Assembly (NCBI GenBank): GCA_021234155.1
Contig: JAJEKV010000292.1
Span: 62,001-126,000 of the forward strand
Source: Isoetes taiwanensis
Lineage: Eukaryota; Streptophyta; Lycopodiopsida; Isoetales; Isoetaceae
Reading direction: 5' to 3'
Length of the DNA: 64,000 nucleotides
Of this stretch, positions 1 to 40,729 are shown one piece after another (position 1 is the stretch's first letter; every line of letters begins with the position of its first letter). Made by a program: the position numbers and the translations under genes. Under the pieces are notes generated by a model that had not been told where the DNA came from, ran no database searches, and saw only the letters and a program-made list of their open reading frames with translations.

Positions 1-340
1 TGGGCGACGTCTCGAAATGAACCCGGAGGAGGTAGTCCGAGCCTCTAGCCCTGGTGGTGGAGTAAAACGACAGGGGGCAAACGACGCTCAAAAGGTGGTG
101 TGGTGGAGTAAATTGAACTGGGTGGTGGAAGCCGCAGGTGGTCGTGGCCGGGAGTAAGCCCAACAGAACTGGGTGTTGGAAATGCCTGAGCTAGAATATT
201 CATGACTACTCGGGTGTCCGCTGAGGAGGTGTGAATTCATTGCAGAGGGAGCCCGAATCGTGAGTTGGAGGCCTCGCGCTTCTTTCTCTCAGCCATACTC
301 GAAATAATGAATAAACACTATAAATGGCTCACGTAAGAAC
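1..340. other. Unassigned left edge
   Basis: No coding sequence is recognisable. A G-rich phrase of the form GGTGG(T)GGA recurs near 50, 105, 125 and 170, so this looks like decayed short-repeat DNA. It sits immediately before the first palindrome cluster and may belong to the same element. Confidence 0.3.
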
Positions 341-345
341 AGACG

Positions 346-1072
346 GGTATAAATTTATACGTAGATGGTATAAATTTATACAGAAAGGGAAAGTCTTGCA
401 GCAAGATAAATTTATACCCGGAGATGGTATAAATTTATTTAGGGGAGGGCAACATAGAAAAACGGTATAAATTTATACGAAAACTCACGGTACACTTGTA
501 TTGGAAACTTTATGGAGAAAACGCTTATACCTAAACCAAGACTTTAGGGTGGGTAATTTGCCCGCATACGGCCACCACCTATTTTCCTATATATATACCA
601 TTCCACATCGTCACAAGGGATCCGCCTATATACCCCCTTCTTATTTGCTCTCAGGAACGTCTATACGCTTTAATCCACGGTCATGGCCACGTAAGTCTAC
701 TTTCCGTACTGTTTTTTTTTCTCTCTTTTGTTTTAACTGTTAGAGTGGTAGCTTCGGCGGTATAAATTTATACCGAGAGATGGCTGCGGATCTAAGATAA
801 ATTTATATCGCGTGCTGAAGGTGGTATAAATTTACCGTTCTAGAACACAACGGTATAAATTTAAGTGTTCTAAGCGGTATAAATTTATGCGTTATAACGA
901 CGGCGGTATAAATTTTATACCGCTCAAGAACACTTTGCGGTATAAATTTATACCGGTGTGTGGCTGAATTATAAATTTATACCCGCCTTGTTAACGGCTT
1001 ATAAATTTATACGCATCCAGCCATCCGGGTATAAATTTATACCGCCGAAATGGGGCTTATAAATTTATACCG
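346..1072. repeat. Palindrome cluster 1 (GGTATAAATTTATACC, upstream)
   Basis: About 17 copies of a 16-bp perfect palindrome or near matches. Examples lie at 346-360, 367-381, 405-419, 463-479, 758-774, 795-810, 822-837, 851-864, 875-889, 904-921, 938-955, 969-984, 998-1012, 1028-1043 and 1056-1071. The core TATAAATTTATA is almost invariant and the outer GG/CC pair is less strict. Spacing is irregular (roughly 15-70 bp, with one gap from 480 to 757), so this is not a tandem satellite. The DNA between copies is not repeated. Such density cannot be chance for a 12-16-mer. Confidence 0.9.
501..743 (+). other. Spacer between palindrome sub-clusters
   Basis: This 280-bp gap in the palindrome cluster has an 80-codon open frame with no recognisable domain. 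Its hydrophobic, T-rich 3' end makes a real protein unlikely. I see no other feature in it. Confidence 0.2.
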
Positions 1073-1540
1073 CTTCAAAAAATTGTTTCTAATCTTGGTG
1101 TCTAGTGCTTAAAGAATGGACCCGAACCTTAATATTTTAGTAATATTGTTGTGTTTTAAGCTTAAATAAGAAAAAAAAGTGTTAATTAATTGTGGATTTT
1201 ATGCCCTTTAGCCTCGCTTTTACCGCTTTTTGTGTGTCAAAAAGTCGAAAAATGTTCTCTTACTAAAAAATGGTTTTTAATCCACGCTCCGGCCCAAGGA
1301 TAAAATTTGTGCGTAAAGGCCAATCTTCAAAGGTTGCACCAATAGAGCCACGGCACGCATTTAACTAAAAAGACCAGGACGCGGGTACGCATTACGGGGC
1401 GCAAGAGAGAGCAAACTAACCGACGCAGCACTGATTACTTGTGCCATCACCGTGGAAGGGCAAGTACAAGGCCGATGATTATTATCCCCCGCCGTGAAAT
1501 TATAAACCCTCGCTTGGCCATAAAAACGAAGAACACTTGG

Positions 1541-1663
1541 CGGTATAAATTTATACCGACAGGGAATCTGGAACATGCGCCCAAAGGCGTGCATGAGTAC
1601 ATATCCAAAATTACAAGCATGCCATGTAAGTTATTCTTAGTGGCATTACGATAAATTTATACC
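1541..1663. repeat. Two isolated palindrome copies before the gene
   Basis: A perfect CGGTATAAATTTATACCG lies at about 1541-1558 and a copy lacking the first bases at about 1648-1663. They are the last copies before the first plausible start codon of the ParB-like gene at 1700. Confidence 0.85.
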
Positions 1664-2089
1664 ATCATCCTCCTAACTTAACCCCAGACATGTGATAGAG
1701 TGGACATTTTGATGTCAATTGGTGCTTTTGCGATGAAAAAGGTGTTGGTCAAAGGTCCGTGGTACCCCACTACTATCGAAGAGGAAGAAAATGATGAGGA
1801 AGTAGAAGAAGAAGAGGAAGAGGAGGAAATAGTAATACCAAAGGGAAAGGGTAGGGAAGCATTCCCCCGGCAAGAGATACACGACCTCCCACCAAAAAAA
1901 AAGACTAGAACCACTAAGGCATTGACTATAGAGGAGTCGCCAGGCTCTTCGAAGGCTCCGGGCAGATATTGTTGTGAAGCCCAGAGACAAGTCAAGTGCT
2001 ATTCTAAAAGCGGGTTAATGACACTAAAACCGCTTAAGCAAACAATTTCCTTGACAATGAGCACTATTAAGAGGCCGCCTAAAAATGAA

Positions 2090-2644
2090 GATGGGGTGAG
2101 AGTTCTTGCAATGAAGAGATATCGCCGCGCACATGTGGCTATACTCAAGCAAAGAATGAGAAGGAATCCTCATGCCCATGTGTCGCCACTAGTTGTAATG
2201 GTTGACGGTGAAGTGCAACCAACTAAAAAGATTATAAAAAGGCTAACTTTGAGGATTACACATATTTTGTACTTGGAGGCACACGAAGTTACAAAGCAAG
2301 GAAGGAACTTTCAAAAGAAGAATCCCGTGAACGAAGTTTGGAAGAGCGAGAAGCACATATCTACGTTGGAGTCACAGACGAAGCAAAGGTCATTGCCGTG
2401 AGTCATAATCTCGACAATGACTTGCATTCAAAAAAATGAGTCTTATAGACAAGATCCGCTTCATGCACCCGGAATACGAGAGTTCAAGCAAGTGCATGGG
2501 GAGGACTTCAAAAACAAAAGAACAAGCTCCAAGAACTTCGAGAAGCTTGTGTCACGAGTGTCGCCACGATCTCGTGATAAGAAGCCCATAATGGCGGTGA
2601 AGGAAGATTTTACACTAATTACCTTGCTTTCGTGAGATGGTCAA
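2090..2644 (+). other. ParB-like (GGNH-type) domain block, first long exon
   Basis: Blocks in order: RRAHVAILKQRM near 2120-2155, a hydrophobic strand LVVMVDGEV near 2190-2215, then YFVLGGTRSYKAR at about 2263-2301 in a second frame. HIYVGVTDEAKVIAVSHN follows at about 2356-2410, then MSLIDKIRFMHPEYE after a one-base shift at about 2437. This pattern (LGGNHS.xA..EL, then V..GLTdeEA..lA..HN) is the ParB-like fold seen in many unannotated eukaryotic and viral proteins. Here the GGNH histidine position reads Arg. The block ends at a GTAAGT donor at 2645. No helix-turn-helix DNA-binding domain is evident downstream. Confidence 0.6.
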
Positions 2645-2760
2645 GTAAGTAAAGGCTTTAATTTAGTTCTCTCAGAGTATGCTTAGCATAGCTGAGTTTG
2701 TATATATTAACATCGGGTTTGTAAACGCGCACTGGAAGACCAGCCACGTGCCCCGTCACA

Positions 2761-2940
2761 AGATAAATTTATACCGCGACTCAGCACGCATGCTTTAAAT
2801 TTATACCGCGGTCCCGGTGGACGGAATAAATTTATACCGCGACCACGCGACGGGTATAAATTTATATGATTCGTGATAATTTATGCTGCCGCACGATAAA
2901 TTTATACCGGGCAGGCCGGGCAACGGATAAATTTTATACC
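2761..2940. repeat. Palindrome cluster 2, inside an intron
   Basis: Six copies of the TATAAATTTATA palindrome or near matches at about 2761-2776, 2793-2808, 2823-2841, 2852-2867, 2895-2910 and 2925-2940, separated by GC-rich spacers of roughly 11-18 bp. The cluster begins about 115 bp after the donor at 2645 and ends before the next coding block, so it is intronic if the gene model is right. Confidence 0.88.
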
Positions 2941-2999
2941 TATCGGTATTCCGTGCAATAATATAGTAGACTTCACAACAAACGCTTTTGTTCGCCATT

Positions 3000-3264
3000 C
3001 AACACTAAAATACTTGTGTTTTTGATCTACAATGTGTGGGATCTTCAAGAAAGAATATTTTGTATGTTCAAGATGGTGAGAAAAAGAACAATCTAGCTCC
3101 CTAGGAAAAAACCAAAAAGGTGGTGAGGCAAAAAAAAAAACATGAGCATTGTACCGGACGCAGCTTCTGTGGTTTGAAAAGCAAAGAAATTTTTGTAAGA
3201 CTTCTAGAAAAAGTTGTGGCAAAAAAGAACTCACTCTCATTTAAATGGCCAAAGAAGCTAAGAC
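3000..3264 (+). other. Candidate internal exon of the ParB/methylase-like gene
   Basis: Lys-rich coding potential on the plus strand, with a short open frame from 3120 and an alternative frame reading WFEKQRNFC. It ends at a GTAAGC donor at 3265. No domain is recognised. It is placed in the gene by position and splice signal only. Confidence 0.3.
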
Positions 3265-3321
3265 GTAAGCCACATTTCTATGTCGTTCTTTTTTTCCTAA
3301 TTTTGTCCGACCATTTTTTCC

Positions 3322-3466
3322 CTCTGCAAATGAAGACATTGTCATATCGCGGTGCGTAATTAATGAAGCAACTAAACCTCGAGGACTGGAGGAGTGCAAG
3401 GCTTTATATCCAACCTCTACTACGATACTATTATCGAGAGCACGCCGTTAACTTCAAAGCTATCGG
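3322..3466 (+). other. Candidate exon (LEDWRSARLYIQPLL block)
   Basis: A T-rich tract and AG acceptor near 3320-3331 precede a short open block containing LEDWRSARLYIQPLL and REHAVNFKAIG. It ends exactly at a GTAAGT donor (3467). One stop near the beginning needs a frameshift. The function is not recognised. The helical, aromatic-rich character fits the linker between the ParB-like and methylase parts. Confidence 0.35.
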
Positions 3467-3559
3467 GTAAGTTGTGCGTAAAAATACTTTTTGTTTTCGT
3501 GCCTTTGTCTCAAAGTTTTCTTGCGAATAAGAAGAAAGGCCTACCAATGTGATTTTTAA

Positions 3560-3962
3560 ACCTGGTTCAGAGGGCCAAGGAGGAGAGGGTAGACCGAAAG
3601 CAATTGAGCAAGGAAAGCAAGTCAAGACTAGCGCTTTGACACTACTTTAGAGATTTACTACATTTGGTCGACGCCCAAAGACAGGGGTTGTTGTAGGGTG
3701 ATTCATCGAGGTCGGGGACTCTTTTAGACAAACAAAACTTTACGTTATGCATTGCGTATATTCCTTATGGCTTCAAAATCAAGGATAGCACTTTTGACGA
3801 GGAGGCTTTTATTCACATGCAAGTCCGCTTCTTTCTTGGATGGCCTAAAAGAAGTCGACATCGGAAAACCGGAGGGTCATCATTTTTCATTCCGACCGCA
3901 GACGATGTCGGGTGCTAAAGCCATTGGGAGTCATGCTCGTAACGGGCTTCAAAACTGCGATG
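3560..3962 (+). other. Methyltransferase motif IV (IPYG) exon block
   Basis: One frame reads through LVQRAKEERVDRKQLSKES, HYFRDLLHLVDAQ and LLDKQNFTLCIAYIPYGF, followed by KIKDSTFDEEAF and, after a shift, FFIPTADDVG. In adenine and cytosine N-methylases this position reads (A/T)DPPYG, followed by a W/F-D-E-E stretch and later a strand ending in iF. Here the catalytic Asp position is Tyr (GAT would become TAT) and the first Pro is Ile. The block ends at a GTAAG donor at 3963. Confidence 0.5.
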
Positions 3963-4007
3963 GTAAGCTTTGAATTTCTTGCTTTTTCTATTTACTTTAA
4001 CACCACG

Positions 4008-4084
4008 GTAGATAAATTTATACCATTAAGCTTCGTGGTATAAATTTATACAACAAGGCAATGGTGGTATAAATTTATACCGCA
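4008..4084. repeat. Palindrome cluster 3, inside an intron
   Basis: Three copies at about 4010-4025, 4036-4051 and 4065-4082 lie just after the GTAAG donor at 3963 and before the next coding block. They flank each other at about 27-30-bp spacing. Confidence 0.88.
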
Positions 4085-4139
4085 ACACCACTTAACTAAC
4101 TTATTTTGTTCGTTTTCTTTACGCCAATGTTTAATTGCT

Positions 4140-4790
4140 TTTTTGTTTGGCGGGCTAAAAACAAACGCCAAAGGACATGGTGGTGGTCCGCGCTAGTAAG
4201 TCGCTTTGAACATTTCCATATTGGTTTTGGCGCGACCAAAAAAAACCATGGTTCATTTCAACACGCAGAATGAAAAGACTCCACCCCGCAACGCCTTTTC
4301 GGTTCCTACGTTTCTACAAAAAATTGAGAGACCCACAAACGACAAGGAGCCTGTGGGTATCTCATTATCGGGTAAGCCACCGCTAATTAATAATTTAATT
4401 CGGTGGTTTTCGCCTGTGAGACCGGATTCTAGATGCATTTTCGTGCTCGTGCACCCATAGGCTTTGCGCCCTTAAGCAAGGGCGCAATGTTGTCTCCGTC
4501 GACATAGACCAGACAAAATAAAGTTTCATCGGGACCGTGATAAGCTCTTGTGAATCCTTTCCCGATGAAAACGAGGAACCGAGCAAAAAGCGGTCGGGCG
4601 ATGTGAAAGGCACATATGTAAATCCACCCTCCACTTACGGGAAGAAGAGATGAGGAGGTGGAGTTTGTCGATCCGGGAGCCCGTGGTGCCTCGAGCAGGA
4701 GAAACAGCTGCACTGTACCATTGGAATCGAAGGGGGCGTGCCTCGCTATTAAAACCTCGCAAGAGACGTAGATCCTAAGGGGCACGAGAG
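4140..4790 (+). other. Methyltransferase motif I exon(s) and acidic C-terminal tail
   Basis: Frame 4420-4521 reads DRILDAFSCSCTHRLCALK then QGRNVVSVDIDQTK. This is the AdoMet-binding motif I (D.FSGSGT...A..GR.vv.vDid), with both glycines changed to Cys (GGC to TGC type changes). After one stop or shift the frame continues with SFIGTVISSCESFPDENEEP, a hydrophilic, Lys/Glu/Ser-rich tail to about 4650, and a further shifted stretch to about 4770. The 5' part contains candidate small exons ending at GTAAG at 4196 and 4372. Confidence 0.5.
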
Positions 4791-4813
4791 TCCCGTGGTG
4801 GAAGAGCCACCTC

Positions 4814-4829
4814 CGTATAAATTTATACG
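4814..4829. repeat. Downstream palindrome copy
   Basis: A CGTATAAATTTATACG copy lies immediately after the last coding block, so the palindromes bracket the gene. I saw no further copy beyond this point in the window. Confidence 0.85.
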
Positions 4830-4849
4830 ATAAGATTTTAAATTAACTT

Positions 4850-5092
4850 TCATTGTAATCTATGTGCTAAGAATACACTAGTTCCTTAGCAATGTGGTCT
4901 CGAGTTCGAGACCGCCCGAATCGTGACTTTGCATCTTTGTTGGGGGTCAAATTCCAACAGACGCTAATGTAAGGTGGTTGGGGGGTGGGCCCAACCAAGC
5001 AATGTAGTGTGGTGTGTGGTCACATGTCCAGTTGGATGCTGCCTAGTGGCGTGACGTTAAAACTACTATCTATCTATCTATCTATCTCTTTT
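4850..5092 (+). mobile_element. SINE-like element candidate with (CTAT)n tail
   Basis: A Pol III B-box-like GAGTTCGAGAC, with T-arm pairing GGTCTC...GAGACC, is at about 4893-4910. A unique body follows, ending in a (CTAT)n simple tail at about 5068-5090. tRNA-derived head plus simple tail is the plant SINE layout. I could not confirm the A box or a target-site duplication, so the left boundary is approximate. Confidence 0.4.
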
Positions 5093-6740
5093 CTATATTT
5101 GATTTTCTTAATACTTATATTAAGCTTGCAAAAAGACAAACTATATTTCCTTCTATTTTCAACAACAAATACTTAATGAGTTTTTAAATTTAATGTCTCT
5201 CTCCTCAAAACAAGCTTTTTTTTTTTTTTGCCCTTTTTTAAAAATGAAAAGGTTTCAAAAATGTTGCTTTTTTTGGGGTATTTCGAATGCTATTTGCTCA
5301 ACAATCTATTTTGCTCCCTATTTTGTCCATTTTTTTCAAGTTTCCAATTTTTATAAAGGAATCTTTCAAACGCACTTCTTAAATAAGTGCGTTTCATTTT
5401 AAACCTTGTTAGTATTCAAAATAAATAAATCCCCTGAAGGTAGCAAGCATTTGTGATTTGCGAGAAGTGTGGAGCATTGGCTCACATGTGTTGAGCAGAT
5501 GATAAAGATACACAGTATGAATGGATCTTCCAGCTAGTGAAAGGGAGGGCCATAAAACATAATGAATGCAACTATAAAGAGTTGGAGTGCGTTTTGAAGC
5601 AAATCAGCCTGTAACAACTAATGGTTTAGTACAAACTAGCCAACCTGTAACAATTAATGGTTTAGTACAAGTAGATGATTTTGAATTGCATGTGTTGTTT
5701 AACTCTTCTTCAAACAGATCACATTGCATGAACATGTGCTCCAAAGTGTGGTACGGCTCCTTAAACAAGACGTATAGGATATAATGGCATTTCTTTCCGT
5801 GGTTTGTGGTATTTTAGAAAAGCCTTGTAGCTAAGCTTATTGTTATATCATAGAATATAAGAAATAAATTGTTACTCCTAGGCAAGCAACGTGATTACGA
5901 TTTCTTTGCCATATGTTTGATATCGCCAAGTTCTAAACAACCACATTGGCTTGAAGAAAATGCTAGAAACAAAAACATAGATTCATGATACAAGCCTTGG
6001 CAAAGAAAATGATTATGGGTCATTCATTAAGAAGGCGCTTTTACATAAGGATTATTTTAAACACTTTATTTAAATCGGTGCCTTTAAATACAATTATGAT
6101 GGTTATGATATATGGAGTAAGTATAAATAAAGTTATCTGGCTAATAATTAGAGTACCTTATAGATTGTAAGGGCCTCTTGGATGTAATATATTCATTGTG
6201 AACATGAATACTCATGGATGGTGGTTGCTTCATGGCTATCTCTTAGCCATTATAATTACACTTTGGTATGCTTAGATTTTGGGCATAATGTGGGTTCAAA
6301 TCCCACATATTCAAGACCGTCTTCCATGCCATTCAAAATTGAGAGATATACTCTACCATAAAATGTCGAACATTAATAATGGATTCAACCTTGTAGTTTT
6401 AGAACCAAACAAATGTCTGCACACTGGGGTGTCTCATTTTTGATGTCCCTTTGTCCCCAATTTAGTACTAAAATCAATAAAGGTGCTTGGAAATCTTGGA
6501 GGCAATTTCAAATTTAGAAAACAAAAATAGCAATAAAAAAATCAAATTCCTTGAATCTTGGAGAACCGGGCTACAGTGCGTGCATGTGTTGAGCCCCGAT
6601 AAAGAAAATTAAAACACCAATGAAATCATCATTCTTGCTTCTCGTCTTTCGATATGTTCAAGGTTTGAATGGAACCAATGGATTGTGTTTCTTTTCCTAT
6701 TTGCAACATTCAATTTGCTCACGCCGATTGGTGTTATTAC
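5093..6740. other. AT-rich stretch, no supported gene
   Basis: Poly-T-rich DNA with only short chance frames. A 17-bp hairpin-like GTGGGTTCAAATCCCAC at 6290-6306 contains a perfect Pol III B box (GGTTCAAATCC). No matching tRNA cloverleaf surrounds it, so it is at most a SINE relic. A 30-bp phrase containing AACAA(C/T)TAATGGTTTAGTAC is repeated at about 5610 and 5650. Confidence 0.4.
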
Positions 6741-8755
6741 GCGATTCGCCAACTCCATAGCCAATCCTTGCTCCGCCTTGCCTACAGCCCTTGCATAGAG
6801 CCCCTTGATTTGCCCCTTTCGCTTCTCTCTCTCTAGGGTTTACTGACCGTCTCTAGCCCCAAAACCCCCAAACCCCTAAAAGGTGATCGACCTTCCACGT
6901 TTTGGTCCCCAAATTGGATTCTCGCGCAAATTTGTATGCCGAGACCCCATCGCCTTTGGAAGTCACAAGATGAGAATAATGTTGAGCTAGGCTCCAACAT
7001 TTGCCCCGACATTGCCATAGCCCAATCTAATCGCCTTTTTGTTCCTCGCTTAGCTTGGCATAACCTCGCCAGCACATGTACCGCCTAGCCCCCGCAGACT
7101 GACAAGCTCCCGCCATAGCCTACCTAAACCTTGCTTGACATGCCATACCCCAAGTCATGGCCACGTATGTCCCCTTCAAGATCCCGACTCACCCCTAGCA
7201 AGTGAGCTTCCATTGCACTCACGCATTCCCACCTCAGCAAACCCCAAAGACGCTCTAATCGACCTCCCAAGCAGCCACCACCTACCGAAACCAAGAAGGC
7301 CACCATGAAGCTGCCCCGCAAGTGATGCAATGGGCAAGGGAGAGACATCCTCCATGAAGAAGGGAGGCCCTAGCCAAGGCCCACATGCCCGGGCCGGCTC
7401 TGCGATGGAAAGGTTCGCCAGTGCCCTTACTGTGGCCTCCTCCGCTGGCGTAATCCTTTTGGGCCACCATCCAAGCCGGGTTGAGGTTAATAGTGCCTCG
7501 CATTGCGGGCCCGGAACGGAGATGGAGTCTCGCGAATATCCCACGTGGTTTGCAGACAGCTTGGTGATAGCAAAACAACGACATCGAATTGGAGACCCAA
7601 GCACAACGGTGACGACATCCGATTGGTGCACTCGAGAGAAAGAAGATCGGGTGTTTCTCGCAGACATGCAGCTCGCTGCGGATACCTGGACGCCGCGAGA
7701 TTGCAGTGATTGTGGACCGCAAATACGCATGGTGACACTTGCGTAATCATGTTTTGGGCCAGATCGAGGTCGATGAGGCCATGCCATGGCACGATGCGCG
7801 ACAAAGCCACACCCCAGCTTGAAGTTGAGGAGGCTACCGCAGAAGATTTAGGTTGCAGTCAGCTTTGAAGTTAACCAGCAAAGATCGAAGAGGATCTCGC
7901 AGACGGACCCGGAAAATGCAGGGAGTTCGACCGGCTGCCAAAGAAGGCAAGGGCCTCCAGCAGGCGCATGAACAATGGGGGCACCGTGACGCCGGGAGAT
8001 GGTAAGATAGGGGACTAAACCTTGCAAGAGCTGAGCTCCCACTTCAGAGAACGTAGGCCACGACATTACGACACCGCACCGCAAGCCCAACAACTTTGTA
8101 AGATGTCAACGGGCGCCACCGTCAACCCGGAACCGTTCCCCACCGCTACGCCCTCACGCGACTAATTATCATCAACGCCGGCCGCCACCTCATGCCGTAG
8201 GCAGCCAGCGGGTTCTCACCTGACCAGCCTGTGAGCACTTCCAGCCACAACCGGTAGTTCTGTGGGCCCTGCTAAGATCAAGAGTAACTTCACCCGAAGA
8301 TACACACACGTATCCTTGGGGCGCATGACGCCTCGGGGTCGTGATCTCAAGCTCAGTTACGACTCGGCTGGGGTCCAGTCACCAGCCACAGCCTAAGTCG
8401 CAGGTTCACGATCAAGATGTGACAAGTTCGAGGCCAGCTACCGCGATGTAAGCATCAAGGGCACATCTCAGACATGTGAGCTGTGATCTTACCCAAAGGC
8501 AACAGAGGCACGTGAGTTCGGCCAGGCCGTGACGCCCGCCAGCCTAATTAAACACCGGCACTGCACTCGCCACCCAAATGCGCTTCCTCGATGTTTCCGC
8601 CCTCTGCACCGCTTTACACTTTGGCTCGCTTCCGCCAACAATGCCGCCTGCTGCTTTTGTCCGGGTTCCGCCTGCGAATTCCCGGGCCCGCTTCCCACTG
8701 GTCCATCATATGACACACACACTACACAAGCATCTTCGACCGCTCAATAGGAATT
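6741..8755. other. GC-rich block, possible 5' part or ORF1 of a LINE
   Basis: Base composition rises sharply relative to both sides. Several overlapping frames on both strands (up to 203 codons) come with that composition and show no domain I recognise. Because a LINE endonuclease begins just downstream on the plus strand, this block may be the decayed 5' UTR and ORF1 of that element. That is inference from position. Confidence 0.3.
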
Positions 8756-22447: not shown

Positions 22448-24010
22448 TCATTTCATTACGAATGCATCTGCAAATAGCTGAAGGTTAATGCTGGAGGAAC
22501 CGCCGGGAAGGGCAGCTGCAATCCCCATTTCTCTGATTTCTCGAATTCTGTTGAGGCATTCTCTGCCTTCCTCGCATTCCATCAGCCTCAAAACACCACT
22601 CTTCACATCTTCGGCACTCACCAATCCGTCTTCATCTCTGATAGCGCCTCTAAAATCCAACCCAATCTTCCACTCCTCCACAATCAATTTACAGTTCAAA
22701 TTCTGCTCGCCCAAAAGGGGCCATGCAAGCACTGGAACTCCGGCGCAGGCACTTTCTAGGGTCGAGTTCCATCTGCAGTGGCTAAGAAATCCACCAACGG
22801 AGCGATGTTGGAGTACCTCGATCTGGGGTGCCCATTTTACCACAATGCCTTCTTCCTCGTTCAGCCCTTCAAAAATCCAGTCCGAATCTTCTTCCTCCCC
22901 TGTCAGGGTCGGCCTCTGTATCCACAAAAATGGAACCTTGCTATCCATTACCCCTTTCGCAATATTTCTCAGCTGCTCTTTTCCCAGCACTGATACGCTT
23001 CCAAACGACACATACAGCACCGAGCCTTCTGCCTGCTTATCAAGCCAATCCATGCACGATCTGTCCTCCACTGTTAACCCAATTTCATTCTTCCCCTGCA
23101 TTTTATTAAAAACCTCGTAGTGATGCATTGGAGATACAGGCAAGTAATTGGGTAACATTTTCCGCATTGCTGCTACTGCTTTGGGCTCTAGTTCTTCGAA
23201 AGAATTTACCAAATTCCAATCTCCTTCTCTGGCTTTGCACTTGCAGAAGTATTCTACAGAAAGGCAATCTTCGTGCACTATCATAGGGATCTCGTTTTGC
23301 ATCAAAATCATATCGCTTGAAACCGCAATTGGGATGGTGCTACTTGCACTTGGATCTGCAGCAAAAAAAACCCAAATTAAAACCAAACTGCTCTGTAGTG
23401 GATTGGAATACTGGCTTCCTTTGATTGTAAATTAGCTCGCTACTAAAATAAAAACTGAGATATGTTTTTCACCTTTAATGGGGATCAATCCTTGAGCCCT
23501 CAGCTCCTCCAAGTTCTGAAATACAAGATGAGTGATGGCATTTGAAGGAAAAAACGTCGCCATATCTAAGCCAAATCTATCTGCAACCTGAGAAGACCAA
23601 TACACAAAGAAGTCAGAAATTATACATGCCACAGAGCAAGGATTTTTCCCCAGTTCTTGCTCCACAAGATTTTCGAAGGGTTTTCTCAGACTATCCACAC
23701 TGGCCATCATGAGCTCAACACCTTTCATTCCAGCAAGCTTTTTGGTTTCTTCATGAGAAAATCCGGCAAGCCCAACAAGCTTAAAACTGGGATCTTGGTC
23801 CACAGATATTCCTGATTGCTTGGCAGTGTCCAACAATCTTTCATGGTTGCCTTGAGTGTTGACAAAAGTAATGGAAAATCCCATTTTTCTGAGAATTTTG
23901 GACAACCGCATTAGAGGATTTATGTGGCCATCTGCAGGAAATGGCAAGACGATAACATGAGGCCTTCTTTGAGCAGATGCCATAGCCAAAATTTCAGTCT
24001 GTTGTTCCAT
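22448..24010 (-). CDS. UDP-glycosyltransferase (family 1, UGT85-like), two exons
   Basis: Transfers a sugar from a UDP-sugar to a small acceptor in the cytosol; the acceptor is unknown. Exon 1 is 24,010-23,473 and exon 2 is 23,355-22,448, joined across a 117-bp GT-AG intron (donor ATTAAAG/GTGAAA, acceptor TGCTGCAG/AT). This gives 1,446 bases and 481 codons with no lesion, normal for the family. The N-terminal PFPADGHINPL contains the expected catalytic His (residue 29) and ISDFF the helper Asp region. The C-terminal PSPG box runs from WAPQ (about 354) to GEQ (about 397). The box reads HCRWNS where nearly all plant UGTs have HCGWNS, an unusual Arg at about 374. Start chosen at MEQQTEIL; MASAQ nine codons in is also possible. 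The upstream frame continues but holds only a decayed repeat of the N-terminus. UGT85-like is a judgement from the N-terminal motif and intron position. Confidence 0.9.
23356..23472 (-). other. UGT intron
   Basis: 117-bp phase-1 intron with GT at 23,472-23,471 and AG at 23,357-23,356 (minus strand). A T-run precedes the acceptor. Splicing restores one continuous frame (codon for Asp split G/AT). Confidence 0.85.
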
Positions 24011-24039
24011 TCTCAATTTCTGTTTAACTGCACAAATGC

Positions 24040-24232
24040 AGTAAACAAAGTCCCTTTGCTGTGGAAATTTGCACAAAAGCATTCGAGGATTTATGTGGCA
24101 ATGTAGAGGAAATGGCAAGACTATGACATGAGGCCTTCTATGAGCAGCCCTTGAGTGTTCTTTAAGTCTTTTGTCTTTTGTTCTTGGCTTCACCAATAGA
24201 TCAGCAATTTTTAAATTGGACCAGACAAACAA
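24040..24232 (-). pseudogene. Relic of a second UGT N-terminus upstream of the gene
   Basis: In frame with and upstream of the UGT start, the sequence RRPHVIVLPFPLHCHINPRM repeats the authentic RRPHVIVLPFPADGHINPLM. It lacks the ADG and diverges after about 25 residues. The same relic is present in the duplicated copy near 29,260-29,310, so it predates the segmental duplication. It is probably a remnant of an older tandem UGT array. Confidence 0.65.
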
Positions 24233-24460
24233 AAGGGCTTACAAGGTTTAGCAAAGCCCATTCTCACTTTTTCTTTAGTGCACTATGGATGCTGGCATGT
24301 ACAGAACTACTATTAATAAAAAATAAATGTTGATGTTTGAGGAGACCTACCAGTTGCAATTCAAGATCTAATTGTGTCAAGCAATACCATAACACCGAGG
24401 CCTAATTTGAGCAATGCCATAACCAAACTTCAATATGTTGTTGGCATAACGTTTTTGTTT

Positions 24461-29400: not shown

Positions 29401-30658
29401 AAGGTTTAGCAAAGCCCATTCTCAGTTTTTCTTTAGTGCAATGCTTAATATTCTTGTCATTTTCCTTTTTTATGTATCTGATTTGGGCTGGCAGCAAACG
29501 ATATGGGGTTTTTTAGGGATATGCTCATTGGGATATGCTCATTATGTTGTTGCTTGGACCTCCAATCATCTCGGCAATTATTTTTATTGCATCGGTACAT
29601 GTACTGGCATGTATAGAACTACTATTAATAAATAATAAATGTCCATGTCATGGGGAACATCCGTCAGGTGTTCTGGGGGATCATAAAGTTGTTGCATCTC
29701 GCTCCCACCGCAACACCGTGATGTTCCGTAGGGTCGTGGCCGGGCTTTGAAATAGAGGAACCTGAGACCTGGGGTTGCAATTCAAGATCTAATTGTGTCA
29801 AGCAATACCATAACACGAGGCCTTATTTGAGGAGGTTGCCATAACCAAACTTCAATATGTTGTGGGTATAACGTTTTTTGTTTAATGCACTTAGATGGCT
29901 ACTTGCATAGAGAACTTCTATTAATATAGAATGAATTCTGATGTTTGCAATTTTGGATCTATTCTGGCCATTTTCAAGAACAAAAATTTTATGATAATGG
30001 CATGGCACATGCTCATGCTCCACGCGCTTCAATAAAATATTGTTTGGGGGTGCCATCTCACGTCTCATTTCAAGTGTCATGATTGGTGCAAATATAAATG
30101 ACATTGGACACATGTGTTCATTCTCTCCACCTACCAAAAAAATTATAACACTTGAATGATTGTCCAAAGTATGACTAGACACATGGTGTTCATTCCATCC
30201 TTCACTTCTCTCCCCATCGCCCTCCTACCCTCTTGCCTTCTCTCCCCATCGGCCTCTTACCCTCTTGCCTTCTCTCTCTAGGGTTTGCCATCTTGCTCTC
30301 ACTAGGGTTTTGCCCACACACCCCAATTTTTCAGCCCTCTATCCCAAATAGTTGCAAAATGGAAGTAAATCCCAGTTCGAATTTAAGCATCCATAACGCT
30401 TCATGCAACTTTCCTGCTTTGTCCTAATCTTTGTTTGTCCTAAGAAGTTGCACCAAGGGCATTTTAGATTCCCCATTTTGGATGTTAAGTACCCAAAATG
30501 CGCTTTGCGCAACTGCTTTATGTTTTCCTGAAAAAGCTGCGCTAAATTTTGGAGTCCTTGTTTTGGATTCTAATGGAGTCCTTGTTTTGGATTCTAAGCA
30601 TAAAAATGCGCTTCGCGCAACCCCCTTTATTTTTATTTTTTTTGAGGGTAAGAGTATG

Positions 30659-37539: not shown

Positions 37540-37686
37540 TGAGGAGGAGTCAAAGGCAAAGATGGAGAAGCTGCTGCTGCTGGAGAAGAACGCCGATAAC
37601 CTGCTACAACCGGAATGGCGTCTCATATAGCAGCTTCGCCCCTTCCCCGGAATCGCCGTCATCCGGCTCGGATCGATGCCATTATT
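37540..37686 (-). repeat. DIRS inner direct repeat (A2)
   Basis: 147 bp, similar along its length to 44,728-44,874 in the same orientation, sharing GGAGTCAAAGGCAAAGATGG and GGCTCGGATCGATGCCATTA. It overlaps the last codons of the recombinase frame. Confidence 0.9.
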
Positions 37687-38697
37687 AAGGGACTCATAAT
37701 GCACACCAACCGCCGGCCGCCAGAGAACGAATCTAAAGGCCCAAAGCGGCGTGAAACCTCGGTGATGACTTCGAATGCGGCACAAAGACAGAGTGTGGAC
37801 GGCCGACATCGCCGTGTGCGCGAGCAGCGTCGGAAAACCCTCGAGATGCTGCGCGGAATGTGGCCTATCCCATACCGAGCGGGGTCTAAGCCGATCGCGA
37901 GCAAACACTGCCGCCACCAAGAACGAGCTGTCGCATAGGATAGAGGGCGCAGGGACTCGGGGTTAGCGCGAAAAAGGGGGCCGCCGGAGGGAGGGTCCAA
38001 GAGAGGGTAGCGACCGGACGAAATAAGACGTTGAAGAATAGTGACCGGGCAGGCGAGGGAGGGCAAACGAGCTAGCGAAATGGTGTGGCCCCTGGCAAGC
38101 TGATCTCTCTTGGACCGACGGATAAAAATCTCGACGTGGGCAGGAGAGAAGGATAAGTCGTGCCAATTCAAAGCCAGGGCCTCGGAGATGCGCAAAAAAG
38201 CCGCGAAGGAAAGGAGAATGAGGGCGGCCCGAGCTAGGACGCCCAAAAAGGCGCCGAGGGGCGTAAAACTGAGTAATGATGGAAACGACGTGATGGGGAA
38301 GAAGAGGCAAAAAGTGCGAGGAGGGCGGCATGACGAGATGCGGCGTGACGAGCAAAGATGGCAAGGGGAGAACCGAGGGCGAGGGAAGATTGAAAAGCTG
38401 ATGAAAAAAGGATATCGCAGCCGAGGCTGTGGCGACCGGGGAGGAAGACATATCCGGTTGGTGGAGAGAAGCAAAAAACGCCGCGACAGCGAAAGGGGAA
38501 GCAGGGAGATAAGATATAGAGTGTGAGCGGCACCAGAGTACAAAACGCCGAAACATAGCAACATAGGCAGAGATGGTAGAAGGGGCGCGGGATGAAAAAA
38601 CTAAGGGGAGCGAAGAAAGAATAGAGGAATGTGAGCGGGGAGGAATCATGTGCTGGCGGTACCACAAAAGAAAAAGAATGCACTCGTTAATCCACAT
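37659..38697 (-). pseudogene. Tyrosine recombinase of the DIRS-like element
   Basis: Breaks and joins DNA without target duplication, integrating the circular cDNA. The N-terminal core-binding part (frame to about 38,180) has STISAYVAMFRRFVLWC, ASAAISFFHQLF. The catalytic part, in the next frame, has FAAFLRISEALALNWHDL with the first Arg, then FIRRSKRDQ with the beta-hairpin Lys. Further on come ARSWWRQCL and GHIPRS, which fits the HxxR box. After this another frameshift occurs, with AARAHGDVG in the third frame. I could not place the nucleophilic Tyr with confidence. Length fits the family (about 330 residues). Confidence 0.75.
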
Positions 38698-38734
38698 TAA
38701 ATTGATGTTTTAAATAAACCAAGAGAATCAAATA

Positions 38735-39140
38735 TTATTCCGTATTAAAGTGACAAAAAGAACATAAATAGCTACATGGCGTCGACACCCGTAAATGAGG
38801 TTGACAAAGTTGGCAACAAAGCATGAGAAAAGCATCAAAAAATAATACATCCACAATAAAAGGTGCCCATGACTTCGCCATTGCATAGAAGAGGCCACCG
38901 GGGCTGAGGGCCAATATAAAACCACCAAAGTCATCCGTAGCGACAAGCCGCCGCATGGTGCAAGACCGCGGGGAATCATAGCGAGGGGGGAAAGCAATGG
39001 TATTAAAGATGTGCCAATCATAGGTGAAGGCGTCTGGCGGGGATCTGATGGGGATATACAAACCGGGTGTTAAAAGCGGGGAGTTTGTGATTAATAGGTG
39101 AAGCAAAGCGGTCAACATGATCACGGGCCCCTCTGAGAAT
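38735..39140 (-). pseudogene. Dam-like methyltransferase block between RNase H and recombinase
   Basis: DHVDRFASPINHKLPAFNTR (about 39,122-39,063), then after a shift PPDAFTYDWHIFNTIAFPPR and LALSPGGLFYAMAKSWAPFI. This is the DlFAs..N.q...f.s......DAf..dW......fPPf...p segment conserved in DIRS, PAT and related elements and assigned to a Dam N6-adenine methylase fold. FPPR occupies the DPPY/FPPF position. Whether it still methylates is unknown in the family. Confidence 0.65.
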
Positions 39141-39149
39141 CAATATGCT

Positions 39150-39500
39150 GGAAACACCATGGCGAGGGCAAACTCATGGTTGAGGCAACGGGAAAGGTAA
39201 TCTGCCCATGCGTTCACGGGGAGGGGGAATCCAAACCGGCTCTGAGAAATAGCACAATGGAAACTGGAAGAAAAATTTCCAAAGCGGAGGTGAATATGTC
39301 GGGAGAAGCGGAACCACCCTTCAAGAATGGAGGCGACGTTTAAATTATCCCCACGGACCGTGACCAGTGGGAATGGATAAAAGGTAAAAAGCCGGCCAAG
39401 TAGGACGGGAAAAAAAGCAAAAAGCTCACGCCATGTGGATGGCCCGGGCGATTCGGCTGCGAAAAAAGACCCATAAAATCAAACGGTTTTGGCCGGCGAA
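39150..39500 (-). pseudogene. RNase H of the DIRS-like element
   Basis: Frame reading STWRELFAFFPVLLGRLF, VTVRGDNLNVASILEGWF and NAWADYLSRCLNHEF. These are the E of the S..RElla helix, the D of the dN.a....i strand and the final N..AD.LSR helix of retroelement RNase H. The first catalytic Asp strand lies in the damaged junction with RT. Confidence 0.7.
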
Positions 39501-39531
39501 GCAACCAACCCCCAACCAAAAAAGCGTAGCA

Positions 39532-40695
39532 TCAAAACCCTAAAACAATGGCCGGCGGAGAGAGGAGAAATAGAATAAAACAGTAGAGAGGGGCATGATT
39601 CCCGAGCAAAATTTCCATGCGGGCTAACGATGATAATGAAATAGGGGCATCCCAGGAAAAAGGCTGTATGAGAAGATAAGAGAAAAAGGTGAGGGAAGAG
39701 ACCAAGGAACCGAAAACGATGCGGAGAGATTGCAGAAAACCAAGGAATCTAGCAAGATGGCGAGAAGTCAAACGAGAGGAAGAGAGAATAGATGAGGAAA
39801 GCTGGAAAAATTTTTCTAACTTCTTGGACGACAAACAAATAATCATAGAAGAAGAGTCAAGGAGGAACCCAAGGAAAATTGTGCGATGGGAAATCTGGAG
39901 ACGACATTTAGGCCATGCAATAAGAAAACCGGCATGTTGCAGATCAGAAATGATACGATATTGGAGGGCGACAGGTTCACGTTGGGTCAAGAAAAGAAAA
40001 TCGTCCATGTAAGGAGTGCAGCGGACACCAAAAGACGCCGATGACGAACAAAGGGGCATAAGTTTGGTAAAAACAAAGGGGGCGGATGCAAGACCAAAGG
40101 GGAGCATTGTAAATACATAAAATAAGCCGTCGAGTTGGAAACCCAAGAAGGTATGGTGTGGGGGCCAGATAGGAACATGATGATAGCCCGACTTTAAATC
40201 CAGAGTAAAAAGAAAATCGAGAGGTTGAAGCAATGACAAGGCATCAGAAAGGGACTCGTAACGGAAGGATGGGACAGATAAGAAAGAATTAAGGTGACGC
40301 AAATCAAGAATAAGGCGAAACTTGTGGGCCCCCTTGGGGACGACTCCCAAGGGAGAACAAAAGAAAGGGCGGTCAGGAACTTGCATGATTGCTCCTGTAA
40401 GCAGAAGGTCACGAATAGCGGAGCGGGCAAATGGGAGTTGGGAGGACAGCGACGAAAGGTTGGGACGGAAAAATGGTTGGGAAGGGGGCCCGTGTGCCCA
40501 AGGAAGGGGGTAACCAGGCTGAATCCAAGAAATAACAAGGGGGTTCGCGGAAATAGAGTGCCAAAATGGTAAACAAGCAGAGAGGCGGCCGCGGACAGAC
40601 AAAGTAGCATAGTGGGTATCAAGGGCGGTAGGGTCAAAGGGGAAATGAGGCAAGGGAGAGGCGAAAACTTGGCAATCTGCAGAAAAAGATAACAC
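39532..40695 (-). CDS. Reverse transcriptase of the DIRS-like element
   Basis: The longest intact frame of the element, 387 codons. Conserved RT blocks appear in order: FARSAIRDLLLTGAIMQVPD, SPLGVVPKG, KFRLILDLRHLN (motif 2), FLFTLDLKSGYHHVPI (motif A, catalytic Asp), LPFGLASAPFVFTKLM (motif B), YMDDFLFL (motif C, catalytic Asp pair), RTIFLGFLLDS (motif E). The catalytic residues are all present, so this domain alone looks intact. Sequence texture (FLGFqldg, PYMDDFL) is that of DIRS/Ngaro RT rather than Gypsy. RNase H follows after a frameshift. Confidence 0.88.
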   Translation of the reverse strand: MLSFSADCQVFASPLPHFPFDPTALDTHYATLSVRGRLSACLPFWHSISANPLVISWIQPGYPLPWAHGPPSQPFFRPNLSSLSSQLPFARSAIRDLLLTGAIMQVPDRPFFCSPLGVVPKGAHKFRLILDLRHLNSFLSVPSFRYESLSDALSLLQPLDFLFTLDLKSGYHHVPIWPPHHTFLGFQLDGLFYVFTMLPFGLASAPFVFTKLMPLCSSSASFGVRCTPYMDDFLFLTQREPVALQYRIISDLQHAGFLIAWPKCRLQISHRTIFLGFLLDSSSMIICLSSKKLEKFFQLSSSILSSSRLTSRHLARFLGFLQSLRIVFGSLVSSLTFFSYLLIQPFSWDAPISLSSLARMEILLGNHAPLYCFILFLLSPPAIVLGF

Positions 40696-40729
40696 ATCAA
40701 ATTAAGCACGCTTTTTTATTGATGACACA

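What the first reader, a model, noticed from the sequence alone, without database searches (positions are those of the whole stretch)
346..4829. About 27 copies of a 16-bp perfect palindrome GGTATAAATTTATACC around and inside one gene
The copies are spread irregularly over 4.5 kb, with unrelated spacers, in upstream, intronic and downstream DNA and not in recognisable exons. This is not a satellite, microsatellite or MITE. Irregular repeats of one palindrome resemble protein-binding sites, such as parS clusters for ParB (also 16 bp) or subterminal transposase sites of CACTA-type elements. The spatial association with a ParB-like/methylase gene suggests a self-recognising element: protein plus its own site array.
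Basis: partly seen in the sequence, partly recalled or inferred. Interest (0 to 1): 0.88.

Follow-up and report, generated by a model that had tools for sequence, protein, structure and literature searches.

The report
Transposon carrying family-specific palindrome arrays
The palindromes are clustered inside a plant jumping gene that also codes for a probable DNA-binding and DNA-methylating protein, and a sister jumping gene carries a different palindrome in the same kinds of places, as expected if each element recognises its own DNA.

Summary
Window 346-4829 holds 26 palindrome sites (5 exact 16-mers); beyond 5410 none is found at one mismatch. They lie in a decayed, left-truncated copy of a DNA transposon that starts 1.4 kb before the window and ends at 5410. 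The genome (1,658,258,908 bases) fits the published Isoetes taiwanensis assembly; the exact motif occurs 7218 times there, the reversed control 0.

The family ("A") has AACAARGTT ends, a 4-bp target duplication (4 of 5 copies tested), a DUF7869 transposase, and a divergent multi-exon gene whose product joins a probable ParB-like region to a beta-class DNA methyltransferase. Sites lie in the shared promoter, introns and the 3' end.

A sister family ("B") has the same two genes and similar ends but a different palindrome, AGTGTATTCCGGAATACACT, again in promoter and introns. Of 8 A copies, 7 hold no B site and one holds one; of 4 B copies, none holds an A site. Whole site sets thus changed together.

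Best reading: cognate binding sites of an element-encoded protein, more likely the ParB-methyltransferase than the transposase, marking the transposon as self, perhaps against silencing. The protein class was already reported in algal transposons; my searches found no description of its site arrays.

The parts
1..5410 (.). Right-hand part of a decayed family-A DNA transposon; homology to the full copy starts upstream of the window (G000:C867:60567, i.e. window -1433) and the left terminus was not found
   Evidence: blastn to the full copy G000:C16:316416-325016, pieces of 70-93% identity
5355..5410 (-). Terminal inverted repeat T1 (AACAAGGTTTAAAATGAAACGCACTT...), right end of the element
   Evidence: 100% match to T1 over 56 bases, W 30355-30410
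1..325 (-). Start of the transposase gene (N-terminal Pro-rich part); the rest lies upstream of the window in this copy
   Evidence: tblastn tn3; DUF7869 E 1.9e-52 in full copy L014
346..479 (.). Palindrome cluster 1, divergent promoter: sites centred 353, 374, 410, 433, 471
683..690 (+). Exon 1 of the ParB-methyltransferase gene (ATGGCCAC before GTAAGT)
   Evidence: read in sequence; same exon in L026 3385-3392
759..1071 (.). Palindrome cluster 2, intron 1: 10 sites centred 766-1063, plus one with an extra T at 905
1294..1627 (+). Decayed exon 2 (approximate limits, by eye); holds one exact palindrome at 1542-1557
   Evidence: tblastn ex2 1198-1479, mapping to L026
1648..1663 (.). Palindrome in intron 2 (centre 1655)
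   Evidence: L026 site 4260 in intron 2
1682..2644 (+). Exon 3, ParB-like region, frame-broken in this copy
   Evidence: tblastn parB, E 2.8e-43
2760..2908 (.). Palindrome cluster 3, intron 3: sites centred 2767, 2799, 2830, 2860, 2900 (and one with an extra T at about 2924)
3427..3962 (+). Methyltransferase exons with motif IV (ADIPYG in relatives), decayed
   Evidence: tblastn mt1, E 1.3e-34
4009..4081 (.). Palindrome cluster 4, last intron: sites centred 4016, 4044, 4073
4131..4596 (+). Methyltransferase exon with motif I (DAFSGSGT in relatives), decayed
   Evidence: tblastn mt2, E 1.9e-27; PF01555 E 2.4e-13 in L026
4814..4829 (.). Palindrome at the 3' end of the gene (centre 4821)

Best explanation
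The window holds one dead copy of a large DNA-transposon family of (very probably) Isoetes taiwanensis. An element codes for (1) a DUF7869 transposase and (2), on the opposite strand from a shared promoter, a protein joining a probable ParB-like region to a beta-class DNA methyltransferase (N6-adenine or N4-cytosine). SHOWN by sequence: family membership, gene content, position of the palindromes in promoter, introns and 3' end, and a sister family with the same plan and a different palindrome. INFERRED: the palindromes are the binding sites of the element's own ParB-methyltransferase; like ParB on parS, a dimer (perhaps a CTP clamp) loads at the palindromes, is concentrated on the element, and methylates DNA around them. 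INFERRED, weaker: this marks the element and keeps it expressed or mobile against host silencing, and because sites and protein change together, each family acts only on itself. Copies without the gene keep the arrays and would be served in trans.
Against: No binding or methylation data. ParB likeness is not significant by sequence profile (best PHROG ParB E 0.14; no Pfam ParB) and rests on the fold of a relative, not of this protein. The transposase could be the binder: between A and B the ParB part (35-51% identity) and methyltransferase (39-56%) are not clearly more diverged than the transposase gene (DUF7869 part 56-68%, middle 54%, N-terminus 33-39%). ParB and methyltransferase exons were found in 3 of 11 first-sampled clusters. 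Outside the promoter the excess of site over spacer conservation is small. One window site is in a decayed exon. The proposed anti-silencing role has no direct evidence.
Confidence: 0.66

Rival explanations
1. The palindromes are binding sites of the DUF7869 transposase (as for TnpA of En/Spm, recalled), used for pairing ends or for repressing its own promoter.
For: Sites lie in the shared promoter and are kept by copies without the ParB-methyltransferase exons, which need a transposase to move. The transposase gene diverged between A and B about as much as the ParB-methyltransferase.
Against: In the full copy the nearest site is about 480 bp from one end and 3.6 kb from the other. The outermost bases AACAAGGTT (L032) and the subterminal AAAGATTCC are shared by A and B while the internal palindrome is not; however, the hairpin stem inside the terminal repeat also differs.
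Confidence: 0.21
2. A host factor binds the palindromes (enhancer or silencer sites captured by the element), and the two families use two host factors.
For: Not excluded by any search; arrays in promoter and introns would suit host transcription factors.
Against: 0 further sites in the rest of the window at one mismatch; the 11 clusters sampled were all in this transposon group; two families of otherwise equal plan have exclusive motifs.
Confidence: 0.08
3. The arrays spread by self-duplication of palindromes (hairpin slippage) in tolerant noncoding DNA and have no bound protein.
For: Spacers form larger inverted repeats around the sites, and some introns show regular 28-bp runs.
Against: Sites are conserved above spacers in the promoter, and the centre six bases differ as a set between families.
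Confidence: 0.05

Closest known systems
[quoted passage not shown] passages seen)
   Same: DNA transposon with an accessory gene on the strand opposite the transposase, product with ParB-like domain plus N4-mC/N6-mA methyltransferase; those authors suggest it may bind and modify its own transposon
   Different: Here a vascular plant; up to 29 palindromes per element are visible; two families with exclusive palindromes. The passages I saw mention no site arrays
Chara braunii proteins such as CBR_g57390 (P0001)
   Same: Same two-part protein, 28-43% identity over the matched parts; 15 of the 16 hits, the query included, are from Chara
   Different: Flanking DNA not available here, so sites unknown
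VANDAL transposons with VANC anti-silencing proteins, Arabidopsis (PMC5735166 passages; PMC10398659 outline and abstract)
   Same: Element-encoded protein whose short motif is clustered in introns, intergenic and terminal noncoding DNA, with different motifs for related families
   Different: VANC21 motif is 9 bp (YAGTATTAY) and not a palindrome; the word methyltransferase does not occur in that paper's main text; VANC causes loss of methylation
Bacterial ParB/parS and Noc/NBS
   Same: Predicted ParB-like fold of a relative; clustered palindromes of similar length (parS 16 bp: recalled)
   Different: No ParA sought; CTP binding and spreading not testable; fused to a methyltransferase

Membership tests
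Cut-and-paste DNA transposon | Terminal inverted repeats and fixed-length target duplication | tested here: met
   T1/T2 ends AACAARGTTTAAAATGAAACGCAC; 4-bp duplications ACCC, ATAG, AAAT, TTGA in 4 of 5 copies with both ends in view; L015 shows none
DUF7869 family | PF25273 domain | tested here: met
   1.9e-52 and 1.4e-46, cut-off passed; that DUF7869 is a transposase is my reading of its motifs and setting
Sola1 superfamily | Sola1 transposase and 4-bp duplication | not tested
   4-bp duplication fits (recalled trait); no Sola1 reference sequence was compared
ParB-methyltransferase transposon accessory proteins (algal class) | Methyltransferase domain, opposite strand to transposase | tested here: met
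   PF01555 2.4e-13; gene orientation
ParB-methyltransferase transposon accessory proteins (algal class) | ParB-like domain | tested here: inconclusive
Beta-class amino-DNA methyltransferase | Motif IV before motif I | tested here: met
   ADIPYG in an earlier exon than DAFSGSGT
Beta-class amino-DNA methyltransferase | Methylation of adenine N6 or cytosine N4 | not testable with these tools
   Structures of both kinds match
VANDAL/VANC | Motif clusters in noncoding DNA of the element, different between related families | tested here: met
VANDAL/VANC | Mutator-type transposase and VANC protein | tested here: inconclusive
   Transposase is DUF7869 and no Mutator domain appeared in the pieces scanned; no VANC sequence was compared
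CACTA (En/Spm) | CACTA ends and subterminal sites | tested here: not met
   Ends AACAA, 4-bp duplication, sites internal
ParB-parS | Clustered palindromic sites bound by ParB with CTP-dependent spreading | not testable with these tools
   Site form fits; binding and CTP use need the bench

The most novel reading that the evidence does not exclude
A eukaryotic transposon has taken over a parS-like segregation module as an epigenetic identity tag: a ParB-type clamp loads on family-specific palindromes in the element's promoter and introns, spreads along it, and its fused methyltransferase writes 6mA or 4mC over the whole element and, in trans, over its gene-less derivatives, protecting it from silencing. 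Families become independent by changing protein and all sites together.
Probability: 0.33. Interest if true: 0.93.

Novelty: new variant of a known kind. Interest (0 to 1): 0.78.

Why it matters
The ParB-methyltransferase accessory proteins of algal transposons were reported as possibly binding and marking their own element, but no target was named in what I could read. Here the likely targets are visible, exist in two mutually exclusive versions, and number thousands in one vascular-plant genome. That makes the idea directly testable: two proteins, two palindromes, a crossed binding assay, and a read-out of adenine or N4-cytosine methylation in a land plant; the existence of 6mA in eukaryotes has been controversial (abstract start of PMC12695648). 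It would also be a second, apparently unrelated case beside VANC of family-specific self-recognition by a transposon.

Tried and rejected
Satellite, microsatellite, MITE: rejected; sites sit in a gene-carrying transposon group. CACTA subterminal sites: rejected (ends, duplication, position). Rfam: no match in the window at gathering score. Viral contigs: no relative of the ParB piece. An argument I first made and dropped on checking: that the ParB-methyltransferase diverged more between A and B than the transposase. Pooled over L031-L033 the identities overlap; only exon 2 is clearly lower (24-26%). I lowered the best explanation from 0.70 to 0.66, the novel case from 0.35 to 0.33, and raised the transposase rival from 0.17 to 0.21 for that reason. 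Helical phasing: in B 28 of 37 neighbour spacings are 40-43 bp (about four turns), but in A, of 226, 50 are 28-29 bp, 75 are 30-33, 17 are 20-22 and 17 are 40-43; suggestive for B, not claimed for A; copies are not independent. The low P value used uniform nulls and dropped the 26-36 class, so it is not used as evidence. A third palindrome, CTCGACTCGCGAGTCGAG, in L028 could not be tied to a ParB-methyltransferase, and its genome count did not complete. The genome count of element ends did not complete. Literature: the listings showed no paper describing site arrays of ParB-methyltransferase transposons; refs 50 and 51 of PMC12477816 are not held, so they may describe them. Passages of PMC12695648 and PMC4455052 gave nothing on this.
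Full report
OBSERVATION. The motif GGTATAAATTTATACC was checked in the window: 23 matches at up to 3 mismatches, all between 346 and 4829, against 0.37 expected. The core ATAAATTTAT occurs 23 times there and nowhere else in 64 kb. With the core TATAAATTTATA at up to 2 mismatches there are 26 sites in 1-5410. Only 5 are exact 16-mers. Over 148 sites from the window and ten related loci the consensus is CGGTATAAATTTATACCG.

GENOME. The window's genome has 1,658,258,908 bases in 1110 contigs. The Isoetes taiwanensis paper (PMC8566536, passages) gives 1658.30 Mb, 204 scaffolds and 909 unplaced contigs (1113 pieces). For a glycosyltransferase frame in the window the highest identity among the 120 proteins listed is 45%, with Selaginella; the best E-value is a Hevea protein at 37%. 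I take the host to be I. taiwanensis, an aquatic lycophyte; this is an inference. The exact palindrome occurs at 7218 places; the same letters read backwards occur 0 times.

WHAT THE CLUSTERS ARE IN. I fetched 11 clusters: the window's own and ten from the head of the listing, in contig order. All 11 share DNA as one transposon group. ParB and methyltransferase exons were found in 3 of 11 (window, C4, C16b); transposase pieces without them in C13 and C14; the other six (C2, C5, C7, C8, C16a, C17) have neither inside the element as far as read, though C2, C7 and C17 show exon-2-like remnants. Four of these six have both ends in view and are 2.2-3.4 kb long. A terminal repeat was found in 9 of the 11, not in C4 or C14. 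A complete copy, G000:C16:316416-325016, is 8601 bp with inverted ends AACAARGTTTAAAATGAAACGCAC. Target duplications of 4 bp were seen in 4 of 5 copies with both ends in view: ACCC, ATAG, AAAT, TTGA; L015 did not show one. In the window copy homology begins at C867:60567, 1433 bases before the window, and ends at window 5410.

GENES. One strand codes for a protein with DUF7869 (E 1.9e-52) and the motifs VVIDGMDQ, LQLDNTTRENKN and GHTHDQIDQMFSRF, which I read by eye as a DDE-type transposase. Divergent from it runs a multi-exon gene. In copy L026: exon 1 (MAT), exon 2, exon 3 with the ParB-like region, and later exons with methyltransferase motif IV (ADIPYG) before motif I (DAFSGSGT), the beta-class order. 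PF01555 scores 2.4e-13; NCBIfam CcrM 3.1e-9, far below its cut-off score. Copies are many and often uninterrupted: the ParB exon gave 2974 first-look candidates, of which 150 were scored, all with E of 1.1e-90 or better.

WHERE THE SITES LIE. In L026 29 sites: 5 in the promoter between the genes, 6 in intron 1, 1 in intron 2, 10 in intron 3, 5 in the last intron, 1 at the position of the stop codon and 1 after it (exon limits partly by eye; that the stop codon falls in the palindrome is read in the C16 copy). In the window copy: 5, 10, 1, 5 and 3 in the same places, 1 at the 3' end and 1 (1542-1557) in a decayed exon 2. Between copies, sites are better conserved than spacers in the promoter (0.88-0.975 against 0.71-0.86); in the last intron (0.86-1.0 against 0.82-0.92) and in short copies the excess is small.

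THE DECISIVE COMPARISON. In the C4 locus a second, diverged relative of the transposon lies next to the first, and beside its transposase start stands another palindrome, GTGTATTCCGGAATACAC. Genome-wide its 16-base part GTATTCCGGAATACAC occurs 3000 times forward and 2974 reverse, control 0. Two such clusters were fetched without knowledge of their genes (L031, L032): both have the same two divergent genes, and L032 starts AACAAGGTT with the subterminal AAAGATTCC of family A but a different hairpin stem. Another copy, found by the Chara protein and not by a palindrome (L033), has a 537-residue open frame over the exon-2-like and ParB-like parts, running on into the first sites after them, and again 15 B sites and no A site. 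Tally at up to 2 mismatches: A copies (C16, L025, L026, L027, L029, L030, window, L028) hold 27, 21, 29, 27, 26, 29, 26 and 8 A sites, with 0 B in 7 of 8 and 1 in L029; B copies (L031, L032, the C4 piece, L033) hold 21, 16, 6 and 15 B sites with 0 A in 4 of 4. Chance expectation in simple shuffles is 0.25-1.55 per copy (ten of these twelve). The B consensus is AGTGTATTCCGGAATACACT. A and B share the arms GTAT...ATAC and differ in the central six bases (AAATTT, TCCGGA). The B arrays are in promoter, intron 1, an intron after the ParB part and the last intron; by my reading the large downstream array is not in exactly the same intron as in A, so arrays have also moved.

MECHANISM. A whole set of sites differing together is what a family-specific binding protein encoded by the element predicts. 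Between the two encoded proteins I favour the ParB-methyltransferase, because ParB-type proteins bind clustered palindromes of this length (recalled), sites are internal, and the outermost terminal bases, which the transposase must use, stayed alike. Divergence does not decide: pooled identities between A and B are ParB 35-51%, methyltransferase 39-56%, exon 2 24-26%, DUF7869 part 56-68%, middle of the transposase 54%, its N-terminus 33-39%. What the binding does is inferred: it would hold the methyltransferase on the element. Protection from silencing is by analogy with VANC (PMC5735166, passages), whose motifs also lie in introns and intergenic parts and differ between related families.

PRIOR KNOWLEDGE. 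[quoted passage not shown] So the protein class is known. New here, as far as my searches go (listings): a vascular-plant host, the candidate target arrays, and their exchange between families. The two source references of that statement could not be read.

Noticed in passing
L028 (rc) 4228-5855: Insert downstream of an A-family ParB exon with four copies of another palindrome, CTCGACTCGCGAGTCGAG (one with a mismatch); related copies at L017 1743 and 1798. Possibly a third self-marked element; no ParB-methyltransferase homology found in the stretch read.
   Followed up: partly
L015 7915-8204: Six copies of GGAATATTCC within 290 bases in neighbouring DNA.
   Followed up: no
window 37659-40701 (-): Frames that by eye look like a DIRS-type retroelement (reverse transcriptase and tyrosine recombinase), in a stretch of strong base skew.
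   Followed up: no
window 22448-24238 (-) and 23.8-31.1 kb: UDP-glycosyltransferase gene; parts of 23.8-28.1 kb recur at 29.0-31.1 kb (repeats).
   Followed up: partly
terminal repeats of families A and B (L014 2416, L032 1576): Each T1 end carries a hairpin at the same place whose stem differs between families (AAACGCACTT against AAACGGGAGTG) while both arms match each other: a second paired change besides the internal palindrome.
   Followed up: partly
L014 6665-7015, L031 3337-3476, L031 5830-6050: Arrays are themselves large inverted repeats (up to 94% over 140 bases), so intron transcripts could form long hairpins.
   Followed up: no
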